A DNA stretch of 64,000 bases from Tubiluchus corallicola (Eukaryota; Priapulida; Priapulimorpha; Priapulimorphida; Tubiluchidae), in NCBI GenBank assembly GCA_030141605.1, contig JAQGDQ010000109.1, forward strand, positions 1-64,000. Direction: 5' to 3'. The translations under genes were made by a program, and so were the position numbers. Below are positions 609 through 64,000 of the stretch, piece by piece. The first letter of the stretch is position 1. Each line of letters opens with the position of its first letter. The notes under the pieces were generated by a model. That model searched no databases. It was given only the letters and a program-made list of their open reading frames with translations, and was not told where the DNA came from.

Positions 609-844
609 GACGCATCAGTTGACGCACCTCTTTAATTGACCTCAATGTACATACTCAACATTGTCATCAATCTCACCAAGTCTGTGATATTTGAGAGTCA
701 GCTGATTTTTTACTGCATTGCACATGATTCATAGAGCTGTTGAAGGAAAAAGACGAAATATGTCGTAATTGTGGCTTCCTAGACGTTTCCAACGTTGCAG
801 TGAGACACAGTAGGCAGAATATGTGAAATTTTTCAGGTTTTAGA

Positions 845-1655
845 ATGTTAATGAAACCCCACAAATGTGACTTATGTGACAAATCATTCTCTTGGCGAGG
901 TCATCTTTTCAGGCACATGAACACTCACACTGGAATGAAGCCCCACAAATGTGACTTATGTGACAAATCATTCTCTTGGCGAGGTCATCTTTTCAGGCAC
1001 ATGAACACTCACACTGGAATGAAACCCCACAAATGTGACTTATGTGACAAATCATTTTTTCAGCAAGGTCATCTTCTCAGGCACATGAACACCCATACTG
1101 GAATGAAGCCCCGCAAATGTGACTTATGTGACAAATCATTTTCTGTGCGATGTAATCTTCTGAGTCACATGAACACTCGTAGAATGAAACCCCACAAATA
1201 TGACTTATGTGACAAATCATTTGCTCAACGAGGTAGTCTTCTCAGTCACACGAACACCCATACTGGAATGAAACCTCACAAATGTGACTTATGTGACAAA
1301 TCATTTTCTCGGCGAGGTCATCTTTTCAGGCACATGAACACTCACACTGGAATGAACCCCGGCAAATGTGACTCATGTGTCAAATCATATTCTGGAATGA
1401 ACCCCCACAAATGTGACTTATGTGACAAATCATTTTCTGAGCGAGGCAGTCTTCTCAGTCACATGAACACTCATACTGGAATGAAACCCCCCAAATGTGA
1501 CTTATGTGACATCATTTGCTCAACGAGGTAGTCTTCTCAGTCATACGAACACCCATACTGGAATGAAACCTCACAAATGTGACTTATGTGACAAATCATT
1601 TGCTCGGCGAGGTCATCTTCTCAGTCACATGAACATTCATACTGCGGCATGCTGA
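845..1655 (+). pseudogene. C2H2 zinc-finger array with frameshift
   Basis: Tandem 28-residue (84-bp) fingers of form C-x2-C-x12-H-x3-H with MKPHKCDLCDKSF linkers, expected to bind DNA. Roughly ten units are readable. Unit 4 has a shortened linker, unit 5 has Tyr in place of the first Cys, and unit 7 is truncated. In unit 9 two bases are missing (GACATCATT at about 1507-1515 against GACAAATCATT elsewhere), so the open frame stops at 1531. The fingers resume in the next frame to a TGA at 1653-1655. TTTTTCAG at 829-836 could be a splice acceptor for the array. It may be a dead gene, an allele with a late truncation, or a transposon-captured array. Confidence 0.7.
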
Positions 1656-2453: not shown

Positions 2454-3266
2454 TTAGTTGTAGGCATCCATACGGCTTCGGCAGGCGCTGTAGTTCAACT
2501 GGATAGACCCAGAGTGTTCCTCCAGAACACGCCGGACATGCTCCTGCTCCTCTTCCCCCTCATCTGAACGAGACCGCCGCCTGGGACGGCCAGGCGACGG
2601 TAACCAGGGGTATCCAGGAAGAGCAAACCCATGCTCCTTCCTGAAACGAATGCCCTCCTGTCACTCCTCGATACCCCTGGCAACGGAGTCCTCCGAGTCA
2701 CTGCTACCCACGGAGGAGGTCGACGAACAATGAAGCTCCTCAGGGTGGAATGCCTGTGGGTAGCAGCCCGCCTCACAAACATCTGGTCCAACTGGAGCTC
2801 CATGCTCCTTCCTGAAACGAATGCCCTCCTGCCACTCCTCGATACCCCTGGCAACGGAGTCCTCCGAGTCGCTGCTACCCACGGAGGAGGTCGACGAACG
2901 ATGAAGCTCCTCAGGGTGGAACGCCTGTGGGTAGCAGCTGTAGTTCGACTGGATACGAGGTCTTCATATGTGGAAGACCCAGAGTGTTCCTCCAGAACAC
3001 GCCGGACATGCTCCTGCTCCTCTTCCTCCTCATCTGAACGAGACCGCCGCCTGGGACGGCCAGGCGACGGTAACCAGGGGTGTCCAGGAAGAGCAAACCC
3101 ATGCTCCTTCCTGAAACGAATGCCCTCCTGTCACTCCACGATACCCCTGGCAACGGAGTCCTCCGAGTCACTGCTACCCACGGAGGTCGACGATCGATGA
3201 AGCTCCTCTGGGTGGAATGCCTGTGGGTAGCAGGCTGCCTCACAAACATCTGGTGCAACTGGAGCT
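2454..3266 (-). pseudogene. Degenerate, internally duplicated Ser/acidic-rich coding segment
   Basis: In one minus-strand frame three tandem copies read SSDSEDSVARGIEEWQEGIR, FRKEHG, then GRPRRRSRSDE, EEEQEHVRRVLEEHSGS and a TAA at 2456-2454. A TTCCAG acceptor near 3272-3267 could begin the oldest exon. Two copies carry TGA where the middle copy and the remnant at 1-90 have TGG (Trp). The family is not recognised. Basic RPRRRSR next to an acidic run looks nuclear or transposon-associated, and the hAT relic nearby makes a transposon accessory ORF likely. Confidence 0.5.
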
Positions 3267-4640
3267 GGAACAATGTGCTAAAAATAAAAAAGCAATAATT
3301 TAGTTTACACAAAAGTACTACACTGTATATACAAAATAGAATCTAATATCGGGTGGCACAGAAAAAATGCACCGAAGTTTTGATTACAATAATATCAAAA
3401 GCAAGTGCCCTACAAACACATGGCTGAAGTTTCTCTGTATTAGTCCTTCCATGTAAGCTTTTGCAGATTAAAAATTTAATTATCCAAACAATAATTATCC
3501 AAAGCTAATAATCAACTGAAAAAAAACAGCCAGGTTGATGTATAAAGTATGCAATGGATGGCAGCACAACATGGCATTATAATGCTTTAACTTTTGACTA
3601 TAAAAGTTTCAAGTTTTAGTTTTTTCGAATTATGGCCATAAAACTTTTGCAGATCAAACATCGAAACAATGTCAACTAGGCGCATACAAAAAACAGTTAC
3701 AGACAATGTATTAAGCCTTTAACAGGGGCAGCAAACTATTCATTTACTCATATATACGCAGCAGAATTATACCAGAGTCAACAGATCTTAAACATCTTGA
3801 CATAGAACATTTGAAACAACTTAAACGGAAAATGCAAGAAAATCGCACAGAGCCCTTTTGATGCAGAAGAGGAACAAAAAGCAGAAAGTATTGAGCTCTA
3901 GCTGGGACCAAATAGCCCTTTTTAGAACAGTCTTCAAAGAAACGCCTTCCTTTTTGATATACTTGTCGAATGTCCACACACTTGGCATTTGCCACACAAA
4001 ACACAATCTGTACTAAATGGTTCAATTAATTTGTTTATAGTATGAACTGTAAATATACAGTTTGCCAACTATACTTTTAGGCAGGCCTAATTCTGCCAAA
4101 TCCTTGTACAAATATACAGTTTGCCAACTATACTTTTAGGTAGGCCTAATTCCGCCAAACCCTTATATGTACAAATATATAGTTATCTTTCTTATTATGG
4201 TGTAATAGTTTACAAATTCTTAATAAGAACAATGGCATGAGTTTGGTAAATGTCTAATGATATCAGAAAACTTTATATCATTTTTAATAAGAAAAAATCA
4301 ACTTTTTCATTGGTCATAAATCAATTTAAAAACCTCTTCTATTCAATTTTAAATTCATCAGCACTTTTTGTTGCTAATAGATTTGAAATGATTTGTCGTC
4401 GTCATCATCGTCTTCTTCGTTGTCGTTGTCTAGGTGCTTTTACATTTCAAAACAGGGCATTTCTGTCAGGCCATTTTAAAATCTAACAATTTTCTATAGA
4501 GACGTCTTTGAAAAGAGTCAATTTCTTTCTGCTGTTTCACTGTAATACAGGTAAATCTTAAAGGTACCTAATAAAGAATCAGAATCTTGGAAAGGAGTAG
4601 GGATATGGCACTTGGACATATGGCAAAACTTGTACAAGGG
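3267..4640. other. Intergenic, includes a 59-bp tandem repeat
   Basis: AAATATACAGTTTGCCAACT and the following 39 bases occur at 4051 and 4110 (period 59), with a partial third copy near 4173. The other open frames here are short and look like chance. Confidence 0.6.
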
Positions 4641-30706: not shown

Positions 30707-30950
30707 AATGAAAAGCTTTACAATTTGGCACAACGGTACCTGGAAGTCTTACACGTAGATTCAATAACTTATTTTTGCATTTTACAGACAGTAATGTTTG
30801 GCGAAACTAGTAAGAATGTTATAGTTATACATAGGCTAGTTGCAATAAATAAACTCTTGCCCGATGTTCACGTAATGGTATTACAAACCCATTTTGAATT
30901 AAATTTAACACTAAACTTGACAGGAAATGTGCAAAACTTATTCAGCCTGG

Positions 30951-31015
30951 ATTTGAACTAGAGACTTTCTGCTTACAAGCCAGACACCTTAGATCAGTAG
31001 GTCACCGCATCCCAA
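30951..31015 (-). repeat. tRNA-related SINE head (copy 2)
   Basis: Minus strand GGCTTGTAAGCAGAAAGTC then AGTTCAAATCC. The anticodon-loop-like CTTGTAAG and the B box suggest descent from a tRNA-Thr(TGT)-like gene. The stem bases are degenerate. Confidence 0.6.
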
Positions 31016-41132: not shown

Positions 41133-42290
41133 TCTGCCTGATCACTTGTCTCATAACTACGCGAAAGCTCGCTATACTGCATATTGTATATAATATATCA
41201 AGTACGATCAGTTTGTGAAAGCTGGAAGTGATTTAATTCAAATTTAAAGATTCAAGATTGTTTATTTCAATCTTGTTTCAAGCGCCCCACACTTAATGCT
41301 AGAGTGACCTAGAAAATTAAACTAGAAACAAAGCTAGAACTGAATTATTTCCTGTCACTGTGAACGTCTTGAAATTGCATTTTTGACGATGAATAAGAAA
41401 GAATATACAAAAATTCTCGAAGGCATTGATGCTGGACGGGTATTATGCTTGAACGTTTTACCGAAAAAGCAAAAATCTACAGAAAAGCTGCGTTCATCAG
41501 CTGGAAGAGTAGAATTAAATCACTCTCATTAATGTTAAGCAATTTAGTTCAAATGAATGATTAAGAAGAGTAGAAGTGCATGCTACCAAAAATTTTTGTA
41601 GATCCTCATTCATTTGACGGCATTCGGGCAATTCTGGTTCGTTTTAGTTTGTGTTTATCTTTGCACACCCTGGCGGTTTTCAGATTTTAAATAATGTACT
41701 TAGATTTTTCATTATGTGTTTTGCTGCCAAAGTTTTATCTATACCAGTTTCATAGTAGCGTTTCGTTTTAGAGAGTAGATAACAAGGTTCTTCAGTTCAT
41801 GAGTATTTAAAAAGTGAAACACGTTGATAGTAAACTTGTCTTGTTCGTTGAACAAAGTCAGAGTTTTATTTTTGTCAAACAGCGCTAGAAAAATTCTTTT
41901 AGATCCCAACCCAAAATGACCTCCAGACTTGTAAAAAGTCCAGTAGCCCTTTACACCTAGTAGCTGAAACTCCGTCTCCAGCACTATTTGAAAAAATAAA
42001 ACTCCGGTTTGAAGCAACAATTTCTCTATGCCAATGTGTATAACATTTCAAATACCGCTGAACTGAGCAGATGAAGGGTTTTATCTGCTCTACGAAAACG
42101 AATAATGCTGATTACACCACTATAACGAGGCAAAAGGAAAACATTTTGATTGTTACAACATTTGACAAAAGGGCAAGCCTACAATAATTATTTAAAATCT
42201 AAATTATCCACATAATATTGTTAGCAATTGTTTTTCTTCACTAGATGTATTTTTTTTATTTTAATATCTCAAGACTGTTTATCTTTGTTT
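41133..42290. other. Upstream of the neuropeptide gene; one unassigned open frame
   Basis: 41739-42020 (-) is open for 93 codons (LETEFQLLGVKGYWTFYKSG and on) with balanced composition. CAAATAG before it could be a weak acceptor. The family is not recognised and it may be chance. Confidence 0.3.
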
Positions 42291-42301
42291 CAGTTTATAA
42301 G
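42291..42301 (+). promoter_or_regulatory. 3' splice acceptor and short 5'UTR of the neuropeptide exon
   Basis: TTATCTTTGTTTCAG ending at 42293 is a strong polypyrimidine acceptor, eight bases before the chosen ATG. It implies a non-coding first exon upstream, not identified. Confidence 0.65.
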
Positions 42302-43108
42302 ATGAGTTTAAGTTCGTCGAGACAGTCTACCACAACTCAAAGCGCCCTTGTAGTTCTTCTTTTTCTTCTACACACATCATCTTTCGTCAACACGGAAAGT
42401 GCCGCGCAGCCTAAGCGAGGGCCTAATGACTTGAACAGATTCGCGTTTGGCTTGGGCAAGCGAGCCCGTGGTCCCACAGACTTGAACGCGTTTGCATTCG
42501 GCCTTGGAAAGCGAGGAAACGATAAGTATAATTTTCCTGATTTGGAAGAACAAGAAAAGAGAGCCAGAGGAAGGGAGGATACAAATCGTTGGGCGTTCGG
42601 ACTTGGTCGCAAACGCGGACCCACCGATTACAGGGCATTCAGTTTCGGTCTCGGAAAACGGGAAGAAATCCCAACAGATCTGAATAGGTTTAGCTTTGGT
42701 CTTGGCAAACGAGAAGAGATACCAACAGATTTGAACAGATTTAGCTTTGGTCTTGGCAAACGTGAGGAGATACCAACAGATCTGAACAGGTTTAGCTTTG
42801 GTCTTGGCAAACGTGAAGAGATACCAACAGATCTGAACAGGTTTAGCTTTGGTCTTGGCAAACGTGAAGAGATACCAACAGATCTGAACAGGTTTAGCTT
42901 TGGTCTTGGCAAACGTGACGACATACCAACAGATCTGAACAGATTTAGCTTTGGTCTTGGCAAACGTGAAGAAATACCAACAGATCTGAACAGATTTAGC
43001 TTTGGTCTAGGCAAACGTGTACCTTTAGAATTTGAAGAAAAGAAGAGGCGGCAAAAGGGAGCATCAGATTTAAATAGCTTCAATTTTGGTTTGGGGAGAA
43101 GGAAGTAA
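42302..43108 (+). CDS. AstA: Allatostatin-A/buccalin-type FGL-amide neuropeptide precursor
   Basis: A 268-residue secreted prohormone on one coding exon. The start at 42302 is preferred over the in-frame ATG at 42245, because a polypyrimidine-AG acceptor (CAG 42291-42293) lies between them and the 42302 Met begins a good signal peptide (ALVVLLFLLHTSSF, cut near the SAAQ region). Twelve peptides end FGLG before dibasic or tribasic sites, predicting C-terminal FGL-amide: GPNDLNRFAFGL, GPTDLNAFAFGL (with optional AR extension), ARGREDTNRWAFGL, GPTDYRAFSFGL, six EEIPTDLNRFSFGL, one DDIPTDLNRFSFGL and a final GASDLNSFNFGL. One acidic spacer (GNDKYNFPDLEEQ) and one basic-rich spacer separate them. 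FxFGL-amide is the arthropod AstA signature. The G-x-D-L start recalls mollusc buccalins. Receptors of the family are galanin/AstA-type GPCRs. Confidence 0.93.
   Translation: MSLSSSRQSTTTQSALVVLLFLLHTSSFVNTESAAQPKRGPNDLNRFAFGLGKRARGPTDLNAFAFGLGKRGNDKYNFPDLEEQEKRARGREDTNRWAFGLGRKRGPTDYRAFSFGLGKREEIPTDLNRFSFGLGKREEIPTDLNRFSFGLGKREEIPTDLNRFSFGLGKREEIPTDLNRFSFGLGKREEIPTDLNRFSFGLGKRDDIPTDLNRFSFGLGKREEIPTDLNRFSFGLGKRVPLEFEEKKRRQKGASDLNSFNFGLGRRK
42662..43018 (+). repeat. Seven 51-bp in-frame coding repeats in the neuropeptide gene
   Basis: Seven contiguous units of 51 bases, each coding one EEIPTDLNRFSFGLGKR-type module. Units 4 and 5 are identical at DNA level and the others differ at a few, mostly synonymous, sites. 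This suggests recent unequal crossing-over or gene conversion. Confidence 0.95.
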
Positions 43109-58106: not shown

Positions 58107-58667
58107 TTTACTTTGTTATTTATTTACTAATGACTTAAATGACGACTGGACACCTAAAACTGATAACAAACAATGTCTTCTCAGTACGGTTGTAATTGCT
58201 TTCAAGAAATATGGCAAAAATATGAGAAAATGCTGAGGAATTAGCAAACAATTAATTAATTGAACTGTGAGATTTTTTGTCAGTTTATTTGGCAGCCAGA
58301 CATAAAATAGCAAATTAGTTTAGTTTAGTATTTATTTCTTGAAAGTGAATTTACAATACAGACAACGTCTGATAGAAGTATTTTCATGTGCTAAGTGCAA
58401 GGTGCTAATAAAGAATAATGGGCATTACAACTAAACTACCATTTCGTTAGATCAAATAAGAGGCTCAAATATAATTTGAAGAAAATGCATTAAGCATGCA
58501 TATATGAGCAATTTACATGTTAATTCGTAAAAGCAATATTTAAATAACAAGAGTATAATAACATACCAGAAAATAGCAAATAGATAAATAACCAATTATG
58601 CCCATTAAAGAAAGAGCAGCATAACCCTCTCCTCCTACCCTCTTGTAAGATATCTAGGTAAGCATTT

Positions 58668-58810
58668 TCAAGCTCCAATTAAAGAACCACTAAAAGTGCT
58701 CTGAAGAGAGGAGTGGAAGTTTCCTTTCTGATATCTGACGTAAACTTCGTCTCCCTTTTTCAGATTAAGTACGACGGAGTTCGCCAAGTGATGATAGCGA
58801 GTGTCATATC
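58668..58810 (-). CDS. Terminal exon of C1q domain with stop
   Basis: Acceptor TTAAAG (58816-58811), then YDTRYHHLANSVVLNLKKGD and EVYVRYQKGN, ending STFSGSLIGA and TGA at 58670-58668. Asn-Ser-hydrophobic-Leu-x-Leu-Lys-Lys-Gly-Asp-Glu-Val followed by S-T-F-S-G at the extreme C-terminus is the classic end of C1q domains. Nothing follows the domain, as usual for this family. Confidence 0.87.
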
Positions 58811-60161
58811 CTTTAACACAACAAAAATATTATTTTAATAAATGTACTATGTATAGTATAAATATTTATATTTATAGTGTATATATTTATACTATAAATG
58901 TATAGTCAACCAAAAAACAAATAAACAACAAATTAAAGCAAATAAAAATAAAAACAAAATAAAATCGTTACTTATGATGGACAGTGATTCTAAAAAATAT
59001 TTTAAAAACTGAAATTATCCCGAACTCAGTTTACTGGCAAAGTGATGTCGGTTCGTTCCCATTTACCAATAAGTCTGCAAGAGAAATAAACGTATAATAC
59101 TAAGGCCTATTATGGTTTTTACTCCACCTAAATAAACCCTTTGAAAACGCTTACCCGAAACTCTCATATATACGACGCCCTTATCGTTGTGATTAATAGC
59201 AGCTGACGAATAAGAATATGTGTTGTATTCCATATATAGATGCGTTTCGAAGAAGTATGTTCCAGTTATAGGTGCTGTAAATACTCCTAAAATGCATAAA
59301 AAACTAAATTGGCGAGTGCGTACAACATTATCACTATTATAGATGCAGGCCTAAGTTCAGTCATGATATTCTTGACATCTACGTCCTGATATTAAATTAA
59401 GACTTGATTACAAGGGGCCTTTTGGAGCGGTGGTCATGGCCCCCGAAATGGGAAGCCAGACATTTCATCGTAGCTCAGTCTAATCTGATTTCTTGGTTTA
59501 ACAAGTAAAAATCTCGTGTTTGTTACATCATTTTTGGTACTGAAACGATAAGATTGTAAACAAAGAACCTTTCCTTATCCTATACAAAAATGGTTCAGTG
59601 CGTTAACAGCAACTAATGTCAGAGTTTAAGAAACCTCCAATTTAACGCAGTGGTAAAGCAACGTACCTGTATCGTTGTTATATGCATTCCCATAGTTAAA
59701 AACGATGTTTCTAAATCTGAATTTGCTGTAATCATTGTAGTAATGCCTATTAGCAGAAAAGGCCAATCCTGAAATTACGATGTTAATTCGGTTACAGAAT
59801 GAGTAAGAAGCAATAAAATTAGGCATATACTTATAAAGCATATGCTCAGTCATACTCCAGCAATGGAAATAATCATTTCTTTGTTTCAAAATTACATGGA
59901 TATATTTCAGACTTTCTCATGAAATGGGAGAACTAAATATTATAAATTTAAGTATTCTCAGCTATATGCAAGGGTACATATGATAATAGTACAATGGCCC
60001 TTCAAAAAAGTCAAAAATATGTAAAATGACAAATGGGTTATCAGAAGTGGTTACCAGACTGCTTTGTTCGGCGTTTGAAGATGCCAATGCAAAGTTGCAG
60101 GAAACATGATGATGATGACGTCGACGACGACGACGACGATGATGATAATGATGATGATGAA

Positions 60162-60242
<81 letters not shown>

Positions 60243-63200
60243 GATGATGATGATGATAATGATGATGATAATGATTCTGATGACTATGACAAAGATGATG
60301 ATAATGTGTTGGTATATGCCGTGCACAGTCATTCTAGTTTCCACATTGTTCATGAAAACGTGGAATATGATGCTATGTCTCATGTCCTGCAAGTGGACGA
60401 TGGGCTCGTAAATTCCAGCAAAGTGTCACTGCGCAAATTGCTTTTTTAACTGTAGTTGTACGACTAAAGGTAAAGATGTGCCCGGTCCGTTTTTTTAGAA
60501 AAACCAATTGCGTAAAATAAATCAGTCAACATAGACGATAGTATCAACACTTTTCTCAAATTAGCTGGCAACTAATCGATTAATTAATTAGATTGACTGT
60601 GATTGGCAGAATGTTCATAAACCATTACAGTTTTTCTAAGTATTATTACCCATTGCAGGTAATGAGTTGGAGAAAGAACGGTTGGAGGAAGAATGATAAA
60701 TTGTGGCCTAGTCGAGATCTAATTGTGTGCTATGAGGAGCAAATATCAGTTTGCAAAACACGGGAATACTGATCCCAGGTCTCAGGTTCCAATCCCGACT
60801 AGTCCGCAGTTATGCAGCGTCTCCTTTCTTTCTCCAACTCATTACTCATGTAATCGTTTATAAACATTCTGTCAAACATAGTCATAATGTAATTATTTGA
60901 CAAACGGTAGTAATTTTTGCTTTATAAAAAATCAGTAAGTGGTTTGTTACAAATCTTCTTGTCGACTGGAGCTTAATTGTAATAAAGTTTAACAGTCTAC
61001 ATTACCTACCATTAACTGAAATTTTCATTTTATTTGAGCTGTGCAAACCAAAGACATTCTCTGCTTGACATTCGTACTCTCCGCCATCTCTGTATTTTAC
61101 TTTTGATCTCGTAAGAACAGATCCAATGTCAGGCAGGACACTTCCGTCTAGTTTCCAGGTGTAAGTTACTTCTGGATTGGCATCAGATTCGCATTTTAAT
61201 TCCAACGTTGATTTCAAAATCATTTCTGAACTTCCGCTAGCAATACTCAAATCTGCATTTAGTGGCGGATCTGGAAAATTTATGATAAGTTAGTTGGGCA
61301 GGCTTTTTGTAAAACTCTGTATTAATGTCACTGTCTTGGCCAGTCGTAATATTAATGGAACAGTCAGCTTTGCAAATTACTGACGGATAATTAATATATG
61401 CAGACAAAGTACATTTTAATAGCTGTGCATTTGCTAGTGCACTATTTTATCCAGAAAAGAAAACATTGCATTTTATAGCTATTTTCTGTCCACCTTCTCC
61501 TATTTTAAACGTTTCTATAAGTGGACATTTTTAAATTCATCCAGTTTTACTTTATTTCAGACGTAACAAAGCGTCCAGTTACACGCTGTAATTGTTACGC
61601 GAGGGTTAGATTACTCATTTCCTTGGCAAAACACATTGTGATACAGGCGGTTTGTGTTTTTGTCCAACGAACATATGTTATTAGTAATAAAATTCAAGAA
61701 ATGTTATTTAAGTTCTGTATCGTGATTGGCTATGGCGCATGTTTTAGCCTCAATTAAATTAGTTAATCATAAAATAATCATAATGTAACTGAGCTTTTAA
61801 AAACCTTACTGGTGTATGTGTAGCCTTCTGTTATACTTGGGGATTTGAAAGTAAAAGCTTAAATATAAAAAGCACGTAATTAAAAAAAACTATCATTTTT
61901 GATGAATTAAAACACTAGCCATTTAACTAATTACTCTGCTGTTTTAATGATGGAATAATAAGGACGATTCAACAATGAGAAAGCCACTGAACTTGCATGT
62001 GCGCGTTTGCGAGTGCAAGAGTTTTTAGACTACTTACAAAGAACGTTCAAACGAATATTGGGAGTAGGAATTGGAAACGAGTCAACCACTACACGACAAG
62101 ATATTATCTTTGCATTGTCACCATTTTTTCCTGAACTAAACGCATGATTTAGAGTGCTCACTGATGTACTCAGTTTAGTTGAGCTGTTGATAAAATCTTC
62201 TTGCTTTGAAGAAGAGGAAATGTCTTCTTCACCTAAAAGACGCAAAAAAGCAACATAATATTACTGATATTGACATCAGATTGTCAGTTTTTTTTGTAAA
62301 CTTGAAATGAGTTCCTGACAAGGCTACTTTTAAAGTTCGGTTAAACCCTGACACTCTTGTACAAAGGTCAAAACGCCTAAGTAGAGTACAGCTGTTAGTT
62401 CTGAATTTCAATCATTGATCCATAAAAACATTTAATCTTTAAGCTTGTTATGCGTTTACGGTTTGATCTTACCTATGATTTAATTTAATCATATTTGTTT
62501 TATTTTCCATTAAAAGCTTTCAATTTTGCGGATATTAAGGTCATTATTCATGATCAGAATTTTCAAAGATTGTTGCTGTTTTTATACACAAACATCGTAA
62601 ATAATTGCAAGAATGTTGAACAACGGTATCACAAAGTACTTACTCATATACCATTTAACTTCAGCAGCTGGATGTACGTCAGCAACAATACATTTGAATG
62701 TTTCATCTAATTCGTTGGCTAAGACAGTAACATCATTTGTAAGTATTTTTTCGTCGTTTAAGAACATCTCCACTTCCTGTGGCTGCACTGTTACACAAAA
62801 AAGTAATCTACAGTAATGGCGTTGACATTCCTTTGAAATGGCTTATAAAATATGATTATAGCAAATCCAAATGCGATTAATCAAAATAAAACAAACATAA
62901 AAAACGCCGATAATGTAACTGTGGAGGCAGCCTCAAGGCTCAAACAATTCGAATGAAAATAATTGCTCAACCAAATGCGAGACAAAATAAACAGTAAAAT
63001 CAGAAAATGGATTAATCAAGGACAAATCCGGTTGGTAACTTTTCGGTTTTGGCTGCTAATTTCCTACCTTGCACCTCAAAACAGGATGCAGCCAGGTGAG
63101 TAAGTTCTAATCAAATCACCTTTTACATGAAAGAGCAAACATCTAGAAATTAAATTCATTACGTATGATTTCTTGTCTCCTTTGCCTTGTAGTTTTTCAC

Positions 63201-63545
63201 GCCACACCTTTGTGATCTCTTTGTCTTTCGTTTATAGACATTCTGGCAATCACAGTCATAATCTAATTAATTAATATATACTTCTAGTGACTCTACGAAG
63301 TGTTTAAAATTTTTGGTCTCCTGTTGCACATAAATTTGCGAAAATTTGCACATAGGCGAAAAAAATACAATTTATCAGTATTTTTTACTTTGTTTAATGT
63401 GTAACTGTATTGTATATGTCAGTCAGTCAGTCAGTCAGTCAGTCAGTCAGTCAGTCAGTCAGTCAGTCAGTCAGTCAGTCAGTCAGTCAGTCAGTCAGTC
63501 AGTCAGTCAGTCAGTCAGTCAGTCAGTCAGTCAGTCAGTCAGTCA

Positions 63546-63588
<43 letters not shown>

Positions 63589-64000
63589 AGTCAGTCAGTC
63601 AGTTTGTCTGTCCGTCCGTCTATCTCTCTGTCTGTCTGTCTGTCTGTTGTACATCTATAGGTATGTCTGTCCGCCTATAATAACATTTTACCTATTACTG
63701 TCAGTTTTGCTGGATCAGACTCCTGCTCAATATCAGGAGCTTCAAAAAGTCGACACACGTAGGTGCCGTCATCTTCCAAGACACTGACATCATCAATTCG
63801 AATGCTGTGCAGTCCATGTATTATTGGGTTGTTGTACATATAAGAAATTCTTCCTGTGATACTAAGAAGATTTCCATCTTTCAGCCACGTAACGTTATAA
63901 TTGACAATAGACACGAGTTTCATGTTGATTCTGCATTCAAGTTCTGCTGTTGATCCCTGCATGACTACAGTACTAGAAGGCTGCATGTCAAAATATTCAC
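58668..64000 (-). CDS. Ig(3)-C1q domain protein gene, 5'-partial, seven exons
   Basis: Seven exons on the minus strand can be joined: 64000(edge)-63692, 62787-62644, 62232-62038, 61270-61010, 59768-59667, 59286-59155 and 58810-58668. Every junction is phase 1 with AG acceptors and GT donors, so the frame stays open to a TGA at 58670-58668. The product has three Ig domains, each with the Cys-Trp-Cys core, then a full C1q domain at the C-terminus. C1q domains form trimeric recognition heads. Joined to Ig domains they resemble the variable Ig-plus-lectin proteins of lophotrochozoan immunity. Signal peptide and promoter lie outside the window. The Ig1-Ig3 linkers and motifs (HPAAEVKWYM, YPP, ANPEVTYTW) also recall nephrin/Kirrel-type Ig proteins. 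The alternative is two adjacent genes. Against it, no convincing signal-peptide exon is seen between 59768 and 61010. The nearest minus-strand AATAAA after the stop is at 58336-58331. Confidence 0.72.
59155..59286 (-). CDS. Exon encoding middle of C1q domain
   Basis: 132 bases between acceptor TTTTAG and donor GTAAGC (59154-59149), phase 1-1. It reads VFTAPITGTYFFETHLYM, the most conserved C1q block, then a strand ending GVVYMRVSG. With the preceding exon it satisfies the PROSITE-type C1q pattern except for its last aromatic position, where Thr is found. No stop codon in frame. Confidence 0.88.
59667..59768 (-). CDS. Exon encoding N-terminal third of C1q domain
   Basis: 102 bases between acceptor TTTCAG (59774-59769) and donor GTACGT (59666-59661), phase 1-1. 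It encodes GLAFSANRHYYNDY, then RFRNIVFNYGNAYNNDTG. These are the A-strand (AFSA) and the F-x5-N-x4-Y part of the C1q signature. The intron upstream, shared with the Ig3 exon if this is one gene, holds a (GAT)n array and an inverted-repeat SINE. Confidence 0.82.
60106..60305 (+). repeat. (GAT)n array in the Ig3-C1q intron
   Basis: About 60 GAT triplets with few interruptions. The poly-Asp frame 60033-60449 across it lies antisense in the intron of the Ig-C1q gene and is judged non-coding. Confidence 0.93.
60550..60895 (+). mobile_element. SINE-like element with terminal inverted repeats (copy 2)
   Basis: Left end CTTTTCTCAAATTAGCTGGC as in copy 1. The arms TTGACTGTGATTGGCAGAAT..AATGAGTTGGAGAAAGAA and TTTCTTTCTCCAACTCATTA..CATAGTCATAATGTAATT are inverted. 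The loop carries A-box-like TGGCCTAGTCGAG (60704-60716) and B box GGTTCCAATCC (60785-60795). A more complete copy than 20849-21132. It lies in the Ig3-C1q intron. Confidence 0.78.
61010..61270 (-). CDS. Exon encoding Ig domain 3
   Basis: 261 bases (87 codons equivalent), symmetric phase 1-1. The acceptor is TTCCAG, the donor GTAGGT (61009-61004). It reads YPPLNADLSI, the first Cys in LELKCESDANPEV, Trp in TYTWKLDG, and DGGEYECQAENVFG around the second Cys: a textbook I-set/C2 domain. It ends KISVN then G. Joined to the next minus-strand exon it gives KISVNGLAFSAN with frame kept, running straight into the C1q domain. Confidence 0.88.
62038..62232 (-). CDS. Exon encoding second half of Ig domain 2
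   Basis: 195 bases between acceptor TTTTAG (62238-62233) and donor GTAAGT (62037-62032). It opens with a Ser/Asp/Glu-rich loop (EEDISSSSKQEDF) and supplies the second Cys in AKIISCRVVV. It closes with IRLNVL, and the split codon T|AT makes the Tyr of a YPP linker to domain 3. The usual DxGxYxC is altered to GDNAKIISC. The Ser-rich loop is longer than in a standard I-set domain. Confidence 0.78.
62644..62787 (-). CDS. Exon encoding first half of Ig domain 2
   Basis: 144 bases between acceptor CAG (62790-62788) and donor GTAAGT (62643-62638). It encodes the linker QPQEVEMFL, the first domain Cys in ETFKCIVADV and the core Trp in HPAAEVKWYM. Phase 1 at both ends. The PAAEVKWY stretch is typical of the second Ig of nephrin/Kirrel-like proteins (family knowledge). 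The domain is completed by the next exon. Confidence 0.82.
63170..63275 (+). mobile_element. SINE-like element, 3' end fragment (copy 3)
   Basis: CGTTTATAGACATTCTGGCA then ATCACAGTCATAATCTAATTAATTAA matches the right arm of copies 1 and 2. 5'-truncated, in the first visible intron of the Ig-C1q gene. Confidence 0.7.
63418..63648 (+). repeat. (CAGT)n microsatellite with TCTG tail
   Basis: About 45 CAGT tetramers, almost pure, then TCCG/TCTG units. Intronic in the Ig-C1q gene; the Ser-Val-Ser-Gln frames are artefacts. Confidence 0.97.
63692..64000 (-). CDS. Exon encoding Ig domain 1
   Basis: The frame is open from the window edge to a donor at 63691 (GTAAAA). It reads a complete V/I-set-like domain: B-strand Cys in AELECRI, Trp in VTWLKDG, and the canonical EDDGTYVC before the F-strand Cys, ending ...AKLTVI then G (phase 1). 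The splice joins G to TG, giving Val, as in a typical interdomain linker (LTVIVQP). The exon may extend past the window edge; no acceptor is convincing inside it. A (CAGT)n array begins about 45 bases into the following intron. Confidence 0.85.

What the first reader, a model, noticed from the sequence alone, without database searches (positions are those of the whole stretch)
58668..64000. An Ig-Ig-Ig-C1q gene assembled from seven phase-1 exons
Seen: three canonical Ig domains and one complete C1q domain on the same strand, every intron GT-AG and phase 1, so frame is kept from the window edge to the stop. Known: lophotrochozoans carry secreted Ig-plus-lectin-domain recognition proteins (FREPs are the best known), and C1q-domain proteins are expanded in several of these phyla. 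Inference: this is an Ig-C1q pattern-recognition or complement-like protein. Three Ig domains before C1q would be an unusual layout.
Basis: partly seen in the sequence, partly recalled or inferred. Interest (0 to 1): 0.88.

Follow-up and report, generated by a model that had tools for sequence, protein, structure and literature searches.

The report
Secreted Ig-C1q multigene family
An animal whose genome looks closest to that of a priapulid worm, not a mollusc, carries a duplicated family of predicted secreted proteins that join three or more antibody-like (Ig) domains to one complement-C1q-like domain, a layout reported so far from snails.

Summary
The gene is real. On the minus strand, seven exons with GT-AG, phase-1 joins encode three Ig domains and one complete C1q domain. 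The contig continues past the window. There I found the missing signal-peptide exon (64514-64562) and two more intact genes of the same 8-exon plan (67.2-75.2 and 76.8-84.6 kb). The family is larger: 9 of the 17 contigs of which I held DNA have both Ig and C1q family exons. One copy has seven Ig3-type exons, giving nine Ig domains plus C1q in one open frame. An unnamed 512-aa relative shows the same order in one frame, with an extra 63-aa linker. The "lophotrochozoan" premise is probably wrong: the host's SoxB1 groups with Priapulus (99/95), on one marker. The layout resembles gastropod QREPs (Ig+C1q); common descent was not tested. Best reading: a secreted recognition or adhesion protein, trimerised by C1q (inferred), diversified by tandem duplication, exon-block exchange and Ig-exon multiplication. 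An immune role is likely but untested.

The parts
63692..64000 (-). Ig domain 1 (V/I-set) exon, phase 1-1; continues 9 bases beyond the window to contig 64009; preceded by a signal-peptide exon at contig 64514-64562 (outside the window)
62644..62787 (-). first half of Ig domain 2 (C2-set type), phase 1-1
62038..62232 (-). second half of Ig domain 2, phase 1-1
61010..61270 (-). Ig domain 3 exon, phase 1-1; the exon type multiplied in another family member
59667..59768 (-). C1q exon a, phase 1-1
59155..59286 (-). C1q exon b, phase 1-1
58668..58810 (-). C1q exon c with TGA stop
58331..58336 (-). AATAAA poly(A)-signal-like hexamer 332 nt after the stop
   Evidence: sequence read directly; meaning of the hexamer from general knowledge

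Best explanation
The locus is the first of three clustered genes for secreted proteins of plan signal peptide - Ig1 - Ig2 - Ig3 - C1q, members of an expanded family in a priapulid-like animal. Shown from sequence: the exon plan, intact frames, a signal-peptide-like start with no other membrane-helix-like stretch, tandem copies, mosaic similarity between copies, and a family member with seven Ig3 exons. Inferred: the C1q domain assembles trimers, as in the C1q/TNF fold, so each molecule presents three arms of three (or up to nine) Ig domains. The arms bind microbes, parasites or cells, and the clustered copies supply a changing repertoire, working like, but not shown to descend with, the snail QREP/FREP recognition proteins.
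For: Gene model and Pfam. Signal peptide and two intact paralogues of identical plan. Best 19-residue mean hydropathy outside the N-terminus only 0.79, 0.94 and 1.06 in A, B, C. P0001 (57% identity over 74% of the query) has the same order in one frame. The Ig Cys pairs and Trp are invariant in 4 of 4 sequences. C1q resembles solved cerebellin-1, adiponectin, C1q-like 3 and C1q-related factor. Family exons on several contigs. Mosaic history: in Ig1, 67 sites join A+B and 8 join A+C; in Ig2b, 7 and 28; Fisher p 9e-13. The nine-Ig member is open over 13 exons (that script chose phase-1 splice sites, so the phase there is imposed, the openness and nearby sites are not). Host placement from SoxB1.
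Against: No expression or binding data. dN/dS is 0.08-0.84 in every Ig and C1q comparison (0 or 0.59 for the signal exon), so no sign of the positive selection expected of an arms race; several dS values exceed 1 and are near saturation. The C1q part, not the Ig part, differs most between copies (39-67% aa by exon against 62-92% in the Ig exons). The Ig module's best PDB relatives are adhesion proteins: carcinoembryonic antigen, SYG-2, contactin-2. Host identity rests on one gene on another contig, and the SoxB1 tree, while tying it to Priapulus, does not group the pair with the arthropod rows.
Confidence: 0.6

Rival explanations
1. Secreted cell-adhesion or synapse-organising proteins: the C1q trimer works as in cerebellins/C1q-like proteins and the Ig arms bind cell-surface partners, with no immune role.
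For: Closest solved C1q domains include cerebellin-1 and C1q-like 3; the Ig module resembles carcinoembryonic antigen, SYG-2 and contactins; copies are under constraint.
Against: Tandem expansion with exon-block exchange and a variable number of Ig3 exons is, from general knowledge, more typical of recognition repertoires. PDB sampling is biased towards vertebrate proteins (general knowledge).
Confidence: 0.25
2. True QREPs: orthologues of the gastropod Ig+C1q family, so that the family predates the split of molluscs and ecdysozoans.
For: Same order of signal peptide, Ig, C1q; P0001 also has a linker between Ig and C1q, like the interceding region described for snail FREPs (PMC7588048 passages).
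Against: A profile search gave 7 hits in 7745 candidates and only P0001 has Ig plus C1q; no gastropod Ig-C1q protein appeared (the search needs shared 5-residue words). Snail VIgL Ig domains are reported as hard for automated tools (PMC9334734, passage), whereas Pfam finds these easily. A review reports QREPs only from two gastropod groups.
Confidence: 0.15
3. Two neighbouring genes, an Ig gene and a C1q gene, wrongly joined.
For: No RNA was available; 1241 bases (1486 in gene B, 949 in gene C) with a microsatellite lie between Ig3 and C1q, and one search lists weak open stretches there.
Against: Same arrangement in three genes with a signal peptide before Ig1, in a nine-Ig member and in the single frame of P0001; no signal-like ATG exon before C1q in the window gene.
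Confidence: 0.03

Closest known systems
QREPs (C1q-related VIgL proteins of Caenogastropoda and Heterobranchia)
   Same: N-terminal Ig domain(s), C-terminal C1q, expansion in Caenogastropoda (PMC10672478, PMC6835236, PMC8878817: passages seen).
   Different: Host looks like a priapulid; three Ig domains of V/I, C2 and I type and up to nine in one copy; no P0001-like linker exon found in the three clustered genes; Ig exons multiply within a gene.
FREPs (Ig + fibrinogen, Biomphalaria)
   Same: Secreted Ig part plus C-terminal recognition domain; Ig trees and C-terminal-domain trees agree less well with each other than the two Ig trees do (PMC7588048, passages); exon histories also disagree here.
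   Different: C1q in place of fibrinogen; interceding region not found in the window gene.
Cerebellin / C1q-like proteins
   Same: Among the closest solved C1q domains.
   Different: Those carry no Ig domains (recalled).
Bivalve SUEL/C1q proteins
   Same: A binding domain joined N-terminally to C1q (PMC6835236, passage).
   Different: Different partner domain; bivalves.

Membership tests
QREP / VIgL | signal peptide | tested here: met
   Exon 64514-64562, MSFSSRAAILILCVISV...; hydrophobic N-terminus in A, B, C; no dedicated signal-peptide predictor was run
QREP / VIgL | N-terminal Ig domain(s) and C-terminal C1q in one protein | tested here: met
   P0001; at the level of gene models, no RNA
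QREP / VIgL | interceding (coiled-coil) region between Ig and C1q (described for FREPs; whether every QREP has it was not checked) | tested here: inconclusive
   No match to P0001's 63-aa linker better than E 4.6 in A, B, C and no candidate exon with a strong donor; weak open stretches remain
QREP / VIgL | reported only from gastropods (Caenogastropoda, Heterobranchia) | tested here: not met
   SoxB1 groups with Priapulus, 99/95, one marker
QREP / VIgL | common descent of Ig and C1q domains with gastropod QREPs | not tested
   No gastropod QREP sequence was returned by the searches made
C1q/TNF superfamily (C1qDC) | complete C1q domain | tested here: met
   PF00386, positions 1-127 of 127, E 4e-19
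C1q/TNF superfamily (C1qDC) | homotrimer | not testable with these tools
Complement C1q (collagen type) | N-terminal collagen repeat | tested here: not met
   No collagen match in the Pfam scan
FREP | C-terminal fibrinogen domain | tested here: not met
   The Pfam scan shows C1q, no fibrinogen, after the Igs

The most novel reading that the evidence does not exclude
A priapulid-type animal independently evolved a snail-like Ig-lectin immune repertoire, and in the C1416 gene the array of seven similar, symmetric phase-1 Ig3 exons (78-96% DNA identity) lets splicing make many Ig-arm lengths or choices on a trimeric C1q base: a Dscam-like diversity device on a secreted complement-like scaffold.
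Probability: 0.13. Interest if true: 0.87.

Novelty: new variant of a known kind. Interest (0 to 1): 0.66.

Why it matters
Ig-plus-lectin recognition proteins are best known from snails, and the passages read here report QREPs only from gastropods. An expanded Ig-C1q family in a priapulid-like animal would mean either a much older origin or a second independent invention, and would give ecdysozoans outside the arthropods a candidate humoral repertoire. The three-gene cluster, the mosaic copies and the nine-Ig member make the route of diversification (tandem duplication, exon-block exchange, Ig-exon multiplication) directly readable.

Tried and rejected
Two-gene reading (Ig gene beside C1q gene): judged unlikely (P0001). 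Lophotrochozoan host: judged unlikely on SoxB1. Mitochondrial COX1 as a species marker: 0 matches in the assembly. A linker exon as in P0001: not found in A, B or C, though weak open stretches exist. Positive selection: not seen. Membrane anchors after the distant Ig1-2-3 sets on C1492/C1457: only hydrophobic ORFs, not interpretable. AST-A motif search of papers for the species: one paper, on the silkworm. Papers with Priapul* and C1q: 6 held, 5 listed; only PMC9835746 was opened, 12 of 17 places shown, and these do not describe a priapulid C1q protein. A phrase search for Ig-C1q wording gave 92 papers; by title none of the 25 listed is about an Ig-C1q protein, none opened. The word QREPs: 12 papers, 3 of them on C1q or lectins. 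Other searches gave nothing further that I used beyond the passages cited. I saw passages only, no whole paper. So 'not described outside gastropods' means not found in these searches. Whole-genome searches for fibrinogen (PF00147), complement C3/TEP (PF07678), PF02460 and 18S (RF01960) did not complete.

Full report
1. What is there. The window is contig C685:1-64000 of a 343.5 Mb assembly of 2344 contigs. On the minus strand, exons at 63692-64000 (to 64009), 62644-62787, 62038-62232, 61010-61270, 59667-59768, 59155-59286 and 58668-58810 join with GT-AG introns, each phase 1, into an open frame ending in TGA. Pfam finds Ig domains (I-set best at 2-99, C2-set_2 at 120-198, Ig_2 best at 235-301) and a complete C1q at 305-425. 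The contig is 615 kb long, and fetching DNA beyond the window showed the start: a 49-base exon at 64514-64562, ATG to a phase-1 donor, coding for a signal-peptide-like N-terminus. The full protein is 447 aa: signal peptide - Ig1 - Ig2 (two exons) - Ig3 - C1q (three exons). Pfam shows no collagen repeat, and no second membrane-helix-like stretch was seen.

2. It is one of a cluster. Further along the contig lie gene B (minus, 75209-67226, 451 aa) and gene C (plus, 76757-84591, 450 aa), each with the same eight exons, the same phases and no internal stop. Identity is uneven. A and B share 96% and 95% of DNA in Ig1 and Ig2a, but in Ig2b A is closer to C (91%) than to B (82%). The C1q exons differ most (39-67% aa by exon). 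Sites in Ig1 are 67 for A+B against 8 for A+C, in Ig2b 7 against 28 (Fisher p 9e-13), so the copies look like mosaics of duplication and exon-block exchange. dN/dS is 0.08-0.84 in every Ig and C1q comparison; several dS values exceed 1, so these ratios are rough.

3. The family in the genome. Searching the genome with P0001 gave 84 exon-sized matches on 22 contigs (the tool calls counts lower bounds, and some of these are probably ordinary Ig proteins). Local profiles of each exon were run over the 26 stretches held, from 17 contigs: 13 of those 22 plus 4. Nine of the 22 contigs were not fetched. Ig and C1q family exons lie on the same strand of 7 of the 17 contigs (C685, C2181, C1416, C2023, C1153, C1485, C2252). 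One search adds C1873 and C392, where the C1q end lies outside the DNA held. Four contigs (C2265, C1883, C1248, C2263) show C1q alone in about 3.3 kb held, and four (C1436, C1492, C1457, C1819) show Ig exons without C1q in the DNA held. C1873 and C392 may be two haplotypes of one place (similar spacing; not tested). On C1416 the order is Ig1 - Ig2a - Ig2b - seven Ig3 exons - C1q a, b, c. Joined, 13 exons give 950 aa with no stop; the signal exon was not sought, one donor is GC, and the script was set to pick phase-1 sites. The seven Ig3 exons are 78-96% identical. On C2023 one search shows three Ig3-type and two Ig1-type matches, followed by C1q exons a and c; the stretch between them, where exon b would lie, was not wholly held. 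On C2181 one of two genes shows no Ig2 match in the 866 bases between its Ig1 and Ig3, so it may be a two-Ig form or damaged. Ig number therefore seems to vary, with three (C685) and nine (C1416) the best supported.

4. Relatives elsewhere. The full-length query found 2 proteins among 4573 candidates, and a profile of A, B, C and P0001 found 7 among 7745. Only P0001 (512 aa, from a 2122-base contig with no source name) has both Ig and C1q. It is 57% identical over 74% of the query and carries the whole order in one frame, which suggests a transcript. Between Ig3 and C1q it has a 63-residue linker, coiled-coil-like by eye (not computed). No match to it was found in A, B or C. In the PDB the best C1q matches include a cerebellin-1 construct, adiponectin, C1q-like 3, C1q and C1q-related factor, 37 sequences in all. 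The Ig part matches carcinoembryonic antigen, SYG-2 and contactins best, 75 sequences of which 60 were shown.

5. Which animal. No COX1 was found in the assembly. I took an intronless SoxB1 gene from contig C719. Its best named relative is Priapulus caudatus (72% over 99%, 475 bits); the next named hit is a spider (64% over 82%, 336 bits); named molluscs and annelids among the 120 listed of 1673 hits lie at 56-61%, a nemertean at 62%. A tree of 38 rows (the query, 30 named and 7 unnamed rows, picked by me from the 120 listed) puts it with Priapulus and unnamed P0008 at 99/95. The same tree does not join this group to the arthropod rows, and no kinorhynch or loriciferan was named in it. So the host is probably a priapulid or a near relative, in Ecdysozoa by Priapulus's taxonomy. 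This is one gene; contamination of C685 was not excluded. The window also carries an allatostatin-A-type FGLamide precursor, which does not decide the phylum.

6. How it most likely works. Shown at the level of gene models: a secretion signal, an Ig arm, a C1q head, no membrane anchor, tandem and mosaic copies, Ig-exon multiplication. Inferred from the C1q/TNF fold: trimers with three Ig arms. Inferred from the pattern of expansion: a recognition repertoire, probably immune; a secreted adhesion or synapse-organising role is the main rival. No complement effector was tested (the PF07678 search did not complete).

7. Against the known. Ig+C1q proteins are described as QREPs: in Heterobranchia few and single-Ig, in Caenogastropoda expanded with one or several Igs (PMC10672478, passages). 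They are said to be upregulated in Littorina on Himasthla infection (PMC8878817, passage). This locus works like a QREP by layout. It does not meet the reported gastropod distribution, the linker test was inconclusive, and descent from QREPs was not tested. I file it as a new variant of a known kind.

Noticed in passing
window 42245-43105 (+): Single-ORF allatostatin-A (FGLamide) neuropeptide precursor with many Lys-Arg-delimited copies such as IPTDLNRFSFGL-G-KR (Pfam Allatostatin E 1e-12).
   Followed up: partly
window 827-1528 (+): ORF of tandem C2H2 zinc fingers.
   Followed up: no
window 2498-3342 (-): Coding-like stretch with internally repeated segments on both strands; the ORF 2498-3130 has no Pfam match.
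   Followed up: no
window 30938-31011 (-): Weak tRNA-family match (32.4 bits, cut-off 29).
   Followed up: no
window about 63420-63600 and 60108-60272: Long tetranucleotide and trinucleotide microsatellites inside two introns of the gene; similar repeats lie in the matching introns of gene B, and the trinucleotide one also in gene C.
   Followed up: no
C1492 and C1457 (L036-L041): More distant Ig1-Ig2-Ig3 sets with no C1q exon in the held DNA; similar hydrophobic ORFs follow two sets on C1492, possibly membrane-bound relatives.
   Followed up: partly
C1416:9560-9637 (L031): A second, partial copy of the last C1q exon just behind the nine-Ig gene's stop.
   Followed up: no
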